A stretch of DNA of 64,000 bases from Planomonospora sp. ID82291 (GTDB taxonomy: Bacteria > Actinomycetota > Actinomycetes > Streptosporangiales > Streptosporangiaceae). Numbering within the stretch: position 1 is the stretch's first letter; each line of letters begins with the position of its first letter. Where the stretch lies: positions 434,001 through 498,000 of the forward strand of contig NZ_JABTEX010000003.1 in the NCBI RefSeq assembly GCF_015711645.1, given 5' to 3'. Shown here in pieces: positions 1,313-4,867 of this stretch. The notes below the pieces were generated by a model. The model was given only the letters and a program-made list of their open reading frames with translations, ran no database searches and was not told the origin of the DNA. Position numbers and translations under genes: made by a program.

Positions 1313-2602
1313 CTACGCCGGCGCCGGACCGCCCTCCGGCTCACCCGCCCCCGGTCCGCTCGTCTCCGGCGCCGGACCGCCCGCCGGCTCACCCGCCCCC
1401 GGTCCGCTCGTCCCCTGCGCCGGACCGCCCTCCGGCTCACCCGCCCCCGGTCCGCTCGTCCCCTGCGCCGGACCGCCCTCCGGCTCACCCGCCCCCTGCG
1501 CCGGACCGCCCTCCGGCTCATCCGCCCCCTGCGCCCGGCCCGGTTCGCCGAGCTGCTCACGCAGGTACTTCCAGACCACGGCGATCAACGCGGCCGCCGG
1601 CACCGCCAGCAGGCTGCCGACGATGCCCGCCAGACTGCCGCCCAGCGTGACCGCGAGCAGGACCACCGCCGCATGCAGGCCCAGACCGTGGCTCTGCACC
1701 ATGGGCTGGAAGACGTTGCCCTCGAGCTGCTGCACCACGACGATGATGATCAGCACGATGAGCGCGTCGGTCGGGCCGTTCGACACCAGGGCGATGAGCA
1801 CGGCCACGAACCCGGCGAAGAGGGCGCCGACGATCGGCACGAACGCCGCGACGAACGTCAGCACGGCCAGCGGGAGCACCAGCGGGACGCCGACGATCCA
1901 CAGCCCCAGCCCGATGAAGACGGCGTCCAGCAGGCCGACGAAGGCCTGGGAGCGGACGAACGCCCCCAGGGTGTCCCAGCCGCGCGCGGCGACGGCCGGG
2001 ATGTCGACCGCGAGCCGGCCGGGCAGCTGGCGGGAGAGCCACGGCAGGAACCGGGGGCCGTCCTTCAGGAAGAAGAACATCAGGAAGAGGGCCAGCACCG
2101 TGGTGACGAGGCCGTTGAGCACCGTGCCCACGCCGGTGACGGCGGCGTTGACGATGCCGCCGACGCTGCCCTGGATGCGGGTCGCGGCCGTGTCGAGCCC
2201 CTGGGCGAACTGGGCGTCGCCGATGTTCAGCGGCGGACCGGCGGCCCATTTCCGCAGCTGCTGGATGCCGTCGACCACACCGGCGGTGAGCTCGCCGGAC
2301 TGGGACGCGACCGGTACGGCGATCAGCACCACGATGCCCGCCGCCACGATGAGGAACAGGACGGTCACCACCGATGCGGCCAGGGCCGGGGGCCACCCGC
2401 GCCGGCGCAGGAAGCGGGTGGGCGGCCAGGTCAGCGTGGTCAGCAGCAGTGCGACGAGCACCGGCCACGTGACCGACCACATCTGGCCCAGCGCCCACAG
2501 CACCACGGCGGTCATCAGCAGGACCAGGAGCAGTTCCAGGGAGATGCGGGCTGAGGAACGCAGTGCCGCTCGGGTCTTCGTGGAACTCAGCGTGGCAGGC
2601 AT
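1313..2602 (-). CDS. AI-2E family transporter with repeat tail
   Basis: A 429-residue multi-pass membrane protein. Hydrophobic segments are arranged as in the AI-2E/PerM family (PF01594): two near the N-terminus, one near residue 80, a long soluble region around 110-160, then a cluster of four or five from about 160 to 345. The FFFLKDG segment in the first C-terminal helix is typical. Members have been linked to autoinducer or peptide export and to ion transport; the substrate here is unknown. From about residue 355 the protein leaves the family and becomes a 16-residue Gly/Pro/Glu repeat (unit GAGEPEGGPAQGTSGP), which is probably an unstructured cytoplasmic tail. It is convergent with the metallophosphoesterase gene. 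Confidence 0.85.
   Translation of the reverse strand: MPATLSSTKTRAALRSSARISLELLLVLLMTAVVLWALGQMWSVTWPVLVALLLTTLTWPPTRFLRRRGWPPALAASVVTVLFLIVAAGIVVLIAVPVASQSGELTAGVVDGIQQLRKWAAGPPLNIGDAQFAQGLDTAATRIQGSVGGIVNAAVTGVGTVLNGLVTTVLALFLMFFFLKDGPRFLPWLSRQLPGRLAVDIPAVAARGWDTLGAFVRSQAFVGLLDAVFIGLGLWIVGVPLVLPLAVLTFVAAFVPIVGALFAGFVAVLIALVSNGPTDALIVLIIIVVVQQLEGNVFQPMVQSHGLGLHAAVVLLAVTLGGSLAGIVGSLLAVPAAALIAVVWKYLREQLGEPGRAQGADEPEGGPAQGAGEPEGGPAQGTSGPGAGEPEGGPAQGTSGPGAGEPAGGPAPETSGPGAGEPEGGPAPA
1318..1535. repeat. in-frame tandem repeat (48-nt and 27-nt units)
   Basis: About three 48-nt units followed by shorter 27-nt units encode the C-terminal tail of the AI-2E-family protein on the minus strand. Unit lengths are multiples of three, so copy-number changes keep the frame. 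A few substitutions separate the copies. Confidence 0.85.
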
Positions 2603-2746
2603 GGGATCACCCTAGTGCGCCCGGCGATCGGCCCGGCGGCCTCGGATCGGCGGCCGGGCGGGGATCGGCCGAGGCCCCGTCGGTGTCCGGGCGGGGGCGT
2701 CCGGGCAGGGGTGTCCGGAATGCGCTCACCGGCTACCTGGATGCGG

Positions 2747-2790
2747 GCCTTCACCTCCGGCCTTCAGGCCGGAGGTGAAGGCCCGCGCGG
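2747..2790. repeat. long perfect hairpin at left end of TnpB element 1
   Basis: Two 20-nt arms (2747-2766 and 2771-2790) are exact reverse complements around a TTCA loop. The inner part, CCTCCGGCC-TTCA-GGCCGGAGG, resembles the TTCA-loop hairpins at the ends of the second TnpB element (58658-58677 and 60095-60114). It fits the subterminal palindromes that IS200/IS605 elements use as ends. The arms run past the TTCAC that I take as the insertion motif, so the exact left boundary is uncertain. Confidence 0.7.
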
Positions 2791-2799
2791 GAGCGCCCG

Positions 2800-2970
2800 C
2801 TAGGGCGCGGGCGTGCCCTGACCGGCCTGTTCTTGCTGCCCGGCCCACCAGGCGTAGGAGACGACGACGGCGCGGGGTTCGCCGTGGCGCTCCACGATGG
2901 TCGCTTCGCCGGTGAAGTGGGCGACGTCGATGCGGCGGCCCAGGTTGTCGCGGAGTTCTCGAACACTCAT
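2800..2970 (-). CDS. Phd/YefM-like small DNA-binding protein
   Basis: A 56-residue protein starting MSVRELRDNLGRRIDVAHF. This is the N-terminal Phd/YefM antitoxin pattern (short strand, helix, then a strand-turn of the type ATIVERHGEPRAVVVSY), which binds DNA as a dimer and normally represses its own promoter. The longer C-terminal toxin-binding part is almost absent and no toxin gene is adjacent. It diverges from tnpB with only 36 bp between the starts, and a 15-nt palindrome lies in that gap. An in-frame GTG at 2982 (adding VTER) is an alternative start. I infer a role as repressor of tnpB or of the element; this is untested. Confidence 0.65.
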   Translation of the reverse strand: MSVRELRDNLGRRIDVAHFTGEATIVERHGEPRAVVVSYAWWAGQQEQAGQGTPAP

Positions 2971-2972
2971 AC

Positions 2973-2998
2973 GTTCCGTCACGGAACCAATGGTACTA
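2973..2998. promoter_or_regulatory. divergent promoter/operator of element 1
   Basis: The 15-nt palindrome GTTCCGTCACGGAAC (2973-2987) lies between the antitoxin-like gene and tnpB. A -10-like TACTAT (2993-2998) sits eight bases before the tnpB GTG, so tnpB mRNA may be leaderless. A protein bound to the palindrome would cover the promoter. Seen: palindrome and hexamer. Inferred: their function. Confidence 0.5.
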
Positions 2999-3006
2999 TC
3001 GGCACC

Positions 3007-4203
3007 GTGCAGCTTCGATACCAGTACCGCCTCTACCCGACGCCCGCCCAGCGCCACGCGCTGGCGCGCGCGTTCGGGTGCGCGCGGACGGTGTACAACG
3101 ACGCCCTGCGCGCCCGGCAGGACGCCCGCGAACAGGGACTGCCGTACGTCTCGGACGGGGACCTGTCGAAGCGGCTCATCACGGCGGCGAAGCAGACGCC
3201 GCAACGCTCCTGGCTGGGCGAGGTCTCCGCCGTAGTGCTCCAGCAGGCGCTGGCCGATCTGAACACCGCCTACCGCAACTTCTTCGCCTCGGTCACGGGC
3301 AAGCGGAAGGGGCCGAAGGTCGCCGCGCCCCGGTTCCGCTCCAAGAGGGACAACCGGCAGGCCATCCGCTTCACGAAGAACGCGCGCTTCCAGGTCACGG
3401 CGGGCGGGAGGCTGCGCCTGCCGAAGATCGGGGACGTTGCGGTGCGCTGGTCACGATCCCTGCCCTCGGAGCCGTCATCGGTGACGGTCATCAAGGACGC
3501 GGCCGGGCGGTACTTCGCGAGCTTCGTCGTGGAGGTCGGCGAGGAGCCGCTGCCCGAGACGGCCGCCGAGGTCGGGATCGATCTGGGGCTGACGCATTTC
3601 GCGGTGACCTCGGACGGCCGGAAGATCGGCAATCCCCGGTTCCTGCGCCGGGCGGCGAAGAAGCTCCGCAAAGCCCAGCAGGTCCTCAGCCGGAAGGCGA
3701 AGGGGTCGAACAACCGCAAGAAGGCCGTCGTCAAGGTCGCCAAGGCTCACGCGAAGGTGGCCGATGCGCGCCGGGACTTCACGCACCAGCTGTCCACGCA
3801 GATCATCCGCGAGAACCAAGCGGTGTATGTGGAGGACCTGTGTGTGACGGGCCTGGCCCGCACGAAGCTGGCCAAGAGCATCCATGATGCGGGCTGGTCG
3901 CAGTTCGTCGGCATGCTCGCCTACAAGGCCGCCCGTCATGGGCGGCATCTCGGCAGAATCGACCGGTGGTTCCCCTCCTCGAAGATGTGCGGGGCCTGCG
4001 GGACGCTCGCCGAATCCATGCCGCTCAACGTCCGGTCGTGGGCCTGCCCGTGCGGGGCCGTCCACGACCGGGACGTCAACGCGGCGAGAAACATCCTGGC
4101 CGCCGGGCGGGCGGACAGGCTAAACGCCTGTGGAGACCAGGTGAGACCACCGCTCGCGGTGGCGCAGGTCGGCGAAGCAGGAAGCCTCAGAGGTGCCGCA
4201 TGA
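3007..4203 (+). CDS. tnpB: RNA-guided endonuclease TnpB (IS605 OrfB family)
   Basis: A 398-residue TnpB with a complete RuvC triad: D192 in VGIDLGLT, E276 in VYVEDL and D356 in HDRDVNAA. The zinc finger has C328, C331, C347 and C349. The N-terminus (QLRYQYRLYPTPAQRHAL) is the usual OrfB helical domain. TnpB nucleases use an RNA copied from the element's right end to cut DNA next to the insertion motif, and so help the element persist. The GTG at 3007 is chosen because conserved sequence starts at once and a -10-like hexamer lies eight bases upstream. The last 25 codons (from LNACGDQV) overlap the presumed guide-RNA scaffold. No frameshift is seen, so it may be active. Confidence 0.9.
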   Translation: MQLRYQYRLYPTPAQRHALARAFGCARTVYNDALRARQDAREQGLPYVSDGDLSKRLITAAKQTPQRSWLGEVSAVVLQQALADLNTAYRNFFASVTGKRKGPKVAAPRFRSKRDNRQAIRFTKNARFQVTAGGRLRLPKIGDVAVRWSRSLPSEPSSVTVIKDAAGRYFASFVVEVGEEPLPETAAEVGIDLGLTHFAVTSDGRKIGNPRFLRRAAKKLRKAQQVLSRKAKGSNNRKKAVVKVAKAHAKVADARRDFTHQLSTQIIRENQAVYVEDLCVTGLARTKLAKSIHDAGWSQFVGMLAYKAARHGRHLGRIDRWFPSSKMCGACGTLAESMPLNVRSWACPCGAVHDRDVNAARNILAAGRADRLNACGDQVRPPLAVAQVGEAGSLRGAA

Positions 4204-4250
4204 CGCGGCACGGGCTGTATCCCCCGCCTTCAGGCCGGGGAGCGCGTCAA
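4100..4250 (+). ncRNA. presumed omega/reRNA scaffold of element 1
   Basis: In TnpB systems the guide RNA comes from the 3' end of tnpB and the right end of the element. Here the region holds an AACGCCTGTGGAGACCAGGT segment, a CCACCGC-TC-GCGGTGG hairpin, and a terminal hairpin with TTCA loop (4221-4228 / 4233-4240, one mismatch). The guide would be the first bases of the flank, from 4251 (TCGAAGGGGGACGGG). The 5' end of the RNA is not visible from sequence. Confidence 0.5.
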
Positions 4251-4867
4251 TCGAAGGGGGACGGGTCCCCGGTGCCCCGGCGCAGGATCTCCGGCTCGCC
4301 CTGCGAGAGGTCCACGACCGTCGTCGGGGTGGCGCCGCACTCCCCTGAGTCGATGACGGCGTCCACCGCATGGTCGAGCCTCTCCTTGATCTCCCAGCCC
4401 TGGGTCAGGGACTCGGTCTCGTCGGGCAGCAGCAGGGTGCTCGACACCAGCGGCTCGCCCAGCTCGGCCAGCAGCGCCTGCACGACGACGTGGTCGGGGA
4501 TCCGGACGCCGACCGTCTTCTTCCTGGGGTGCAGCAACCGCCGCGGCACCTCCTTGGTGCCGGGCAGGATGAACGTGTAGCCGCCCGGGGTCGCCGCCTT
4601 GACCGAGCGGAACTGCGCGTTGCTCACGTGCACGAACTGGCCGAACTGGGCGAAGTCCTTGCACACGAGGGTGAAGTGATGGTCGCCGCCGAGGTTGCGG
4701 ATCTCCCTGATCCGGTCGATCCCGTCCTTGTTGCCCAACCGGCATCCCAGCGCGTAGCCGGAGTCCGTCGGGTACGCGATCAGCCCGTCCGCCCGTAGGA
4801 GATCGGCCACCTGGCCGATCAGCCGGGGCTGCGGACTGTCCGGATGCACGTCGAAGTATTTCGCCAC
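4247..4867 (-). CDS. YciO-like member of the Sua5/YrdC/YciO family
   Basis: A 206-residue protein with the YrdC fold signature: LLRADGLIAYPTDSGYALGC near residue 30, then KDGIDRIREIR and a long RIPDHVVVQALL stretch. The family includes the enzyme that makes threonylcarbamoyl-AMP for the t6A modification of tRNA. The pattern here is closer to YciO, a paralogue whose role is less clear. The start at 4867 is directly followed by the conserved MAKYFDVHPDSPQPR. The stop codon and the last base of the final Asp codon come from TnpB element 1. Removing the element, assuming TTCAC as insertion motif, would make the end PFE-stop instead of PFD-stop, so function is probably kept. Confidence 0.8.
   Translation of the reverse strand: MAKYFDVHPDSPQPRLIGQVADLLRADGLIAYPTDSGYALGCRLGNKDGIDRIREIRNLGGDHHFTLVCKDFAQFGQFVHVSNAQFRSVKAATPGGYTFILPGTKEVPRRLLHPRKKTVGVRIPDHVVVQALLAELGEPLVSSTLLLPDETESLTQGWEIKERLDHAVDAVIDSGECGATPTTVVDLSQGEPEILRRGTGDPSPFD

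What the first reader, a model, noticed from the sequence alone, without database searches (positions are those of the whole stretch)
2755..4250. TnpB element with a divergent Phd/YefM-like gene and shared palindromic promoter
The element carries only tnpB and a 56-residue antitoxin-like DNA-binding gene with no toxin. They start 36 bp apart around the palindrome GTTCCGTCACGGAAC, and tnpB appears leaderless. A transposon nuclease kept under control of an exapted antitoxin would limit self-cutting; alternatively nuclease plus repressor could act as an addiction pair.
Basis: partly seen in the sequence, partly recalled or inferred. Interest (0 to 1): 0.7.

Follow-up and report, generated by a model that had tools for sequence, protein, structure and literature searches.

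The report
Antitoxin-like gene replacing transposase beside TnpB
A small mobile DNA element has lost its own transposase gene and carries in that slot a tiny antitoxin-type DNA-binding protein that probably turns down the element's RNA-guided DNA cutter (TnpB); relatives show that the same kind of swap happened several times, so controlling the cutter seems to matter to these elements.

Summary
Confirmed and extended. Window 3007-4203 encodes TnpB with an intact catalytic triad and a conserved omegaRNA 3' end. The divergent gene ending at 2800 encodes a Phd/YefM-like protein (60 or 56 aa); no toxin is present. The element proper is 2737-4250 (target GCTAC, 2732-2736), inserted in the stop codon of a tsaC/sua5-like gene.

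Relatives mostly carry a Y1 tnpA in exactly this divergent slot. The phd gene has replaced tnpA, keeping its start position and the overlapping leaderless promoters. In 341 genomes of the family, 26 of 29 inspected PhdA loci lie divergently beside tnpB or its remnant. Close PhdA pairs have dN/dS of about 0.07-0.22. A second Phd type and RHH-like genes take the same slot elsewhere, one of them in a second element of this window.

The conserved candidate operator is a set of GGTACC-like boxes in 9-bp phase over both -10 hexamers, absent beside tnpA and in a lineage with frameshifted phd.

Best reading: an autorepressor of tnpB that took over the tnpA slot. An addiction pair is not supported. DNA binding and repression are untested.

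The parts
2732..2736 (+). Target site / presumed transposon-adjacent motif GCTAC, left flank of the element
   Evidence: GCTAC conserved at the left junction of more than 30 relatives while the flank before it varies; three copies in genome G451 share sequence from there on, with different flanks
2737..4250 (+). Whole element, 1514 bp, derived from an IS200/IS605 element, without tnpA
   Evidence: LE and RE conserved in relatives; in an empty site of a relative (L114) CCTAC is followed directly by TCGAAG, the sequence that follows the RE here
2743..2786 (.). Left-end hairpin with perfect 21-bp arms
   Evidence: an LE hairpin around CTTCAG is present in most relatives
2800..2982 (-). Phd/YefM-like gene (PhdA), 60 aa from GTG 2982 or 56 aa from ATG 2970; proposed repressor
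   Evidence: Pfam PF02604 E 2.6e-8; dN/dS about 0.07-0.22 between close relatives; divergent next to tnpB in relatives
2983..3006 (.). Candidate operator: three GGTACC-like boxes in 9-bp phase (GGAACC 2983-2988, GGTACT 2992-2997, GGCACC 3001-3006), each one mismatch from GGTACC
   Evidence: At least two boxes in 12 of 14 intact PhdA elements, 0 of 61 tnpA/none elements, 0 of 4 with broken PhdA; GTAC counts
2990..2995 (-). Presumed -10 (TACCAT) of the phd gene, 7 nt before GTG 2982
   Evidence: read from sequence; the same TACCAT-TGGTT stands before tnpA in several relatives; not tested by experiment
2994..2999 (+). Presumed -10 (TACTAT) of leaderless tnpB, overlapping the phd -10
   Evidence: TAnnnT 5-8 nt before the tnpB start in 60 of 78 relatives, 4.1 in shuffles
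3007..4203 (+). tnpB, RNA-guided nuclease, 398 aa, RuvC D192/E276/D356 intact
4126..4250 (+). omegaRNA 3' part and right end: last hairpin, then GTCAA; the guide would be copied from the flank from 4251 on
   Evidence: conserved in 40 relatives with compensated pairs; RE ends in GTCAA in nearly all
4247..4867 (-). tsaC/sua5-like gene at whose stop codon the element inserted; host gene, not part of the element except that its TGA (4247-4249) comes from the element's TCAA
   Evidence: TIGR00057 E 6.1e-52; homologous empty site in L114

Best explanation
This is an IS200/IS605-family element whose divergent tnpA has been replaced by a Phd/YefM-type antitoxin gene used as a stand-alone transcription repressor. 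Phd dimers would sit on GTAC-centred boxes that cover the overlapping, back-to-back -10 hexamers and so repress both their own gene and the leaderless tnpB. TnpB-omegaRNA would be kept low once the element is established and could rise when the element enters a cell without repressor. Shown: the gene pair and its conservation, replacement of tnpA in the same slot, purifying selection, box conservation and its loss with phd, intact TnpB triad and omegaRNA. Inferred: DNA binding, repression of both genes, and the benefit (less self-cutting).
For: TnpA, PhdA, PhdB or an RHH-like gene occupy the same divergent slot in 81 related loci. In 341 genomes of the family 26 of 29 inspected PhdA loci lie divergently beside tnpB or its remnant, including a distant TnpB lineage of 31-32% identity. 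PhdB: of 11 close loci read (L157-L167), 10 are beside tnpB or a remnant and 7 have GTAC at all of -43/-23/-13. GTAC per promoter: PhdA 2.14, PhdB 1.86, controls about 0.2; P 1.5e-7 and 3e-8, not corrected for relatedness. The GGTACC array in 9-bp phase occurs only with intact PhdA. dN/dS. TGTACA is the known YefM/Axe operator core (PMC7730913). The protein is short: the Pfam match covers positions 5-50 of 74, so most of the C-terminal toxin-binding part is missing. Phd-bearing elements multiply: three near-identical copies with different flanks in G451.
Against: No binding or expression data. The window's own boxes are weak: one exact GTAC, two boxes with one mismatch. The middle box overlaps the -10, so part of its conservation can be promoter. 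Box spacing is 9 or 10 bp against 12 bp in YefM/Axe. Statistics do not correct for phylogeny. AlphaFold of the 56-mer was poor (mean pLDDT 59.5), so the family assignment rests on sequence.
Confidence: 0.76

Rival explanations
1. Nuclease-antitoxin addiction pair: TnpB acts as toxin, Phd neutralises it (as protein or by repression), and loss of phd or of the element harms the cell.
For: Phd family membership; a nuclease gene next to an antitoxin-like gene.
Against: A lineage with frameshifted phd and lost boxes keeps tnpB with an intact triad in several copies. Many relatives carry tnpB with no antitoxin-like gene. The protein lacks most of the usual C-terminal toxin-binding region.
Confidence: 0.06
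2. The phd gene regulates transposition rather than nuclease level: it acts on tnpA supplied in trans or binds the element ends as an accessory factor.
For: It sits in the tnpA slot; the genome holds one related TnpA (68% identity) that might mobilise the element.
Against: The conserved boxes lie in the tnpB/phd promoter. tnpA and phd are alternatives in the slot, not partners.
Confidence: 0.07
3. Passenger gene: phd was captured by chance, represses at most itself, and has no effect on tnpB that matters.
For: phd is absent or broken in many relatives without loss of tnpB.
Against: Two Phd types and RHH-type genes take the same slot; purifying selection; the boxes cover the tnpB -10.
Confidence: 0.09
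4. The reader's palindrome GTTCCGTCACGGAAC (2973-2987) is the operator.
For: It is a perfect palindrome between the two annotated starts in this copy.
Against: Present in 1 of 14 intact PhdA elements; its left arm lies in the first codons of phd if the start is 2982, and its right arm is a diverged GTAC box.
Confidence: 0.02

Closest known systems
IS200/IS605 family elements with divergent tnpA and tnpB
   Same: TnpB with DED triad, omegaRNA at the right end, TCAA right end, hairpin ends; the closest relatives still carry a divergent Y1 tnpA
   Different: tnpA replaced by a Phd-type gene; it must be moved by a TnpA from elsewhere or be immobile
IS1341 group (tnpB-only elements)
   Same: No transposase gene of its own
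   Different: Carries a second conserved gene with regulatory features, so it is not tnpB-only
Phd/YefM antitoxins and their autoregulated operators (yefM-yoeB, axe-txe, phd-doc)
   Same: Pfam Phd_YefM domain; GTAC/TGTACA cores over the promoter
   Different: No toxin gene, shortened C-terminus, divergent rather than co-transcribed partner, box spacing 9-10 bp instead of 12 bp
C proteins of restriction-modification systems (AhdI, EcoRV)
   Same: Works alike: a small DNA-binding protein times expression of a nuclease that can harm the host; EcoRV has overlapping divergent promoters (PMC5333194)
   Different: Different protein family, no methyltransferase; analogy only
TldR (nuclease-dead TnpB relatives acting as RNA-guided repressors)
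   Same: TnpB family linked to transcription control
   Different: Here TnpB keeps its catalytic triad and would be the regulated gene, not the regulator

Membership tests
IS200/IS605 family | TnpB with RuvC DED triad | tested here: met
   D192/E276/D356 aligned with solved TnpB chains and conserved in all 81 related loci
IS200/IS605 family | Conserved ends with hairpins, TCAA-type right cleavage site, fixed short target site | tested here: met
   LE GCTAC| and RE GTCAA| conserved; TCAA is a common RE cleavage site (PMC9956272)
IS200/IS605 family | Own Y1 transposase TnpA | tested here: not met
   The slot holds phd; tnpA is present in relatives and once elsewhere in the genome. So it is a non-autonomous derivative of the family
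IS1341 group | tnpB as the only gene | tested here: not met
   Second conserved gene under selection
Phd/YefM protein family | Curated family model above its cut-off | tested here: met
   Pfam PF02604 34 bits against 29.8; NCBIfam TIGR01552 is below its cut-off, 17.3 against 20.8
Type II toxin-antitoxin system | Adjacent toxin gene | tested here: not met
   No toxin gene in the element; only tnpB and the element ends
Phd/YefM-type operator | Two TGTACA cores 12 bp apart in the promoter | tested here: inconclusive
   GTAC cores 9 bp (PhdA) or 10 bp (PhdB) apart over the -10
Phd/YefM-type operator | Protein binds the site and represses | not testable with these tools
   needs gel shift and reporter assays
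TldR | Catalytically dead TnpB | tested here: not met
   triad intact

The most novel reading that the evidence does not exclude
TnpB elements of actinomycetes have repeatedly traded their transposase for an antitoxin-class autorepressor (two Phd types, an Arc-like RHH beside another TnpB lineage, and a further RHH-like gene). These non-autonomous 'repressor plus RNA-guided nuclease' modules would behave like zygotic induction: quiet in a cell that already has the element, bursting on entry into a naive cell, so that the nuclease helps the element to persist with little self-harm.
Probability: 0.4. Interest if true: 0.78.

Novelty: new variant of a known kind. Interest (0 to 1): 0.64.

Why it matters
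How transposons keep TnpB, a relative and likely ancestor of Cas12, from harming the host is largely open. A recurrent, interchangeable repressor in place of the transposase would be direct evidence for selection on TnpB dosage, would explain one use of toxin-less 'orphan' antitoxins, and gives a clear set of proteins and operators to test. None of the papers found in the held library describes such a pair; that library lacks most subscription journals.

Tried and rejected
Element start at 2755: rejected, the conserved end is 2737; a first pattern for the left end was too narrow, and my own first idea of TTCAC as target was dropped once the alignment showed GCTAC. Addiction pair: disfavoured by broken-phd lineages. 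Nuclease-dead TnpB: rejected. Rfam gave only chance hairpin hits to animal microRNA families below their cut-offs. The sigma-70 consensus scan found nothing, so the -10 evidence is comparative only. AlphaFold of PhdA was too poor to use. A single-strand fold of the omegaRNA region was not more stable than shuffles; the comparative alignment was informative instead. Plasmid searches found no close PhdA or PhdB. No toxin partner was noticed by eye beside the two PhdB-like genes without tnpB that I read; their neighbours were not searched against family libraries.

Full report
1. The observation. tnpB lies at 3007-4203 (+), starts with GTG and encodes 398 aa with the three TnpB Pfam domains. Its RuvC residues D192, E276 and D356 align with solved TnpB structures and are conserved in all 81 related loci. 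On the other strand a gene ending at 2800 encodes a protein of 56 aa (ATG 2970) or 60 aa (GTG 2982) that matches Phd_YefM at E 2.6e-8. NCBIfam's phd_fam matches below its cut-off. There is no toxin gene between the element's ends.

2. The element. The right end ...GGGGAGCGCGTCAA at 4250 is conserved in the family and followed by unrelated flanks. The left end is marked by GCTAC, preceded by unrelated flanks in more than 30 loci and in three near-identical copies in one genome. I therefore place the element at 2737-4250 with target GCTAC at 2732-2736, not at 2755. In a relative without the element (L114) the tsaC/sua5-like gene ends at CCTAC|TCGAAG, which is what joining the window's two flanks gives but for one base. 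By this reading the gene's last codons changed from TTC GAG TAG to TTC GAT TGA, the stop now coming from the element's TCAA. The region before the right end is a conserved omegaRNA 3' part with compensated pairs in 40 relatives.

3. What is usually in the phd slot. I fetched the 80 closest relatives and classified the gene divergent from tnpB. Of 81 loci, 42 have tnpA, intact or broken (Y1; Pfam E 6.6e-42 for a representative); 11 have PhdA, four of them frameshifted or decayed; 8 have a second Phd type, PhdB, one with an internal stop; 1 has an RHH-like gene; 19 have none recognised. The start of tnpA lies 22-25 nt from tnpB, that of PhdA 24 nt in most cases. In a class-wide sample, tnpA predominates beside this TnpB and no further PhdA was found. 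So tnpA is most likely ancestral and phd the replacement. On the TnpB tree PhdA and PhdB are scattered among tnpA tips (at least 6-7 changes for PhdA), though many branches are weakly supported. phd and tnpB distances also disagree: L025 has a TnpB close to that of L034 (dN 0.09) but a PhdA close to the window's (dN 0.07) and far from that of L034 (dN 0.24). Exchange of the left half between elements is the simplest reading.

4. The reverse test. Searching 341 genomes of the family with a PhdA profile gave matches in 24 genomes. Of 29 loci inspected, 26 have tnpB or a remnant of it divergently beside phd, counting three where only the first tnpB codons fit on the contig; L139, L146 and L150 do not. 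In L145 and L147 the partner is a distant TnpB with 31-32% identity. For PhdB, 10 of 11 close loci (L157-L167) lie beside tnpB or a remnant; L167 does not. An Arc-like RHH gene is divergent to a tnpB, mostly of another lineage, in all 8 loci found, two of them in this genome.

5. Selection and operator. Close PhdA pairs have dN/dS of about 0.07-0.22 (0.07/0.32, 0.09/0.47, 0.09/0.59, 0.03/0.41); distant pairs are too short and diverged to judge. GTAC occurs in the last 40 bp before tnpB in all 14 intact PhdA and PhdB promoters of the tnpB-anchored set, at fixed places (-23, -14, -5 or -23, -13), at least twice in 12 of them; of 61 tnpA/none loci 14 have one and none has two. In the extended set, at least two GGTACC-like boxes in 9-bp phase occur in 12 of 14 intact PhdA loci and in none of the tnpA, none or broken-PhdA loci. 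The four frameshifted PhdA loci without boxes form one lineage, so this is one event, not four. In YefM and Axe operators the core is TGTACA (PMC7730913). The window copy has one exact GTAC and two boxes with one mismatch. The middle box overlaps both -10 hexamers (TACCAT 2990-2995 on -, TACTAT 2994-2999 on +), so bound protein would block both promoters; but part of its conservation may be the promoter itself. P values ignore relatedness.

6. Mechanism and rivals. Repression of tnpB and phd by Phd is the best reading (0.76). The addiction pair is disfavoured because intact tnpB persists without phd. A role in transposition and a passenger gene are possible but explain the boxes less well. The benefit is inferred: TnpB cuts sites that match its guide and is thought to help elements persist (established for other TnpBs, not tested here); less of it after establishment should cost the host less.

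7. Known or new. Papers found by full-text search did not describe Phd or RHH genes paired with TnpB. This is absence from one library, not proof of novelty; database annotation may already label the small gene 'Phd/YefM antitoxin' without comment. I call it a new variant of a known kind.

Noticed in passing
window 58648-60130, left limit approximate (tnpB 58691-59887 -, RHH gene 59938-60078 +): A second tnpB element in the same window with a divergent Arc/CopG-like ribbon-helix-helix gene of 46 aa (Pfam RHH_5 E 2.1e-7); another copy at G000:C9:267558. The same layout recurs in 6 other genomes: a parallel case to the finding.
   Followed up: partly
window 4247-4252: The element landed in the stop codon of a tsaC/sua5-like gene and supplies a new stop (TGA from TCAA), changing the last residue from E to D, so the host gene is hardly disturbed.
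   Followed up: yes
L019, L020, L033, L036 (and L149, L154, L156): A lineage of elements with the phd gene frameshifted or decayed, boxes and canonical -10 lost but tnpB kept, present in several copies per genome.
   Followed up: partly
L145, L147, L138: PhdA beside a distant TnpB (31-32% identity in L145 and L147) with a Shine-Dalgarno-like leader and one GGTACC between the genes: the phd gene has moved between TnpB lineages. L138 keeps only the C-terminal part of that tnpB.
   Followed up: partly
L045, divergent gene starting 34 nt upstream of tnpB: A 74-aa VapB/RHH-like gene (weak Pfam match, E 0.015) in the same slot, possibly a further independent replacement of tnpA.
   Followed up: no
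window 3007-4203, zinc-ribbon region: The second cysteine pair reads C-P-C-G (CxC) instead of CxxC in this TnpB and its close relatives.
   Followed up: no
G000:C8:477207, C8:1559605, C8:1753306 (L007-L009): Three near-identical copies of another tnpB-like gene in the same genome.
   Followed up: no
window 1313-1500: The C-terminus of the neighbouring AI-2E-family transporter gene consists of repeats of GEPEGGPAQ type.
   Followed up: no
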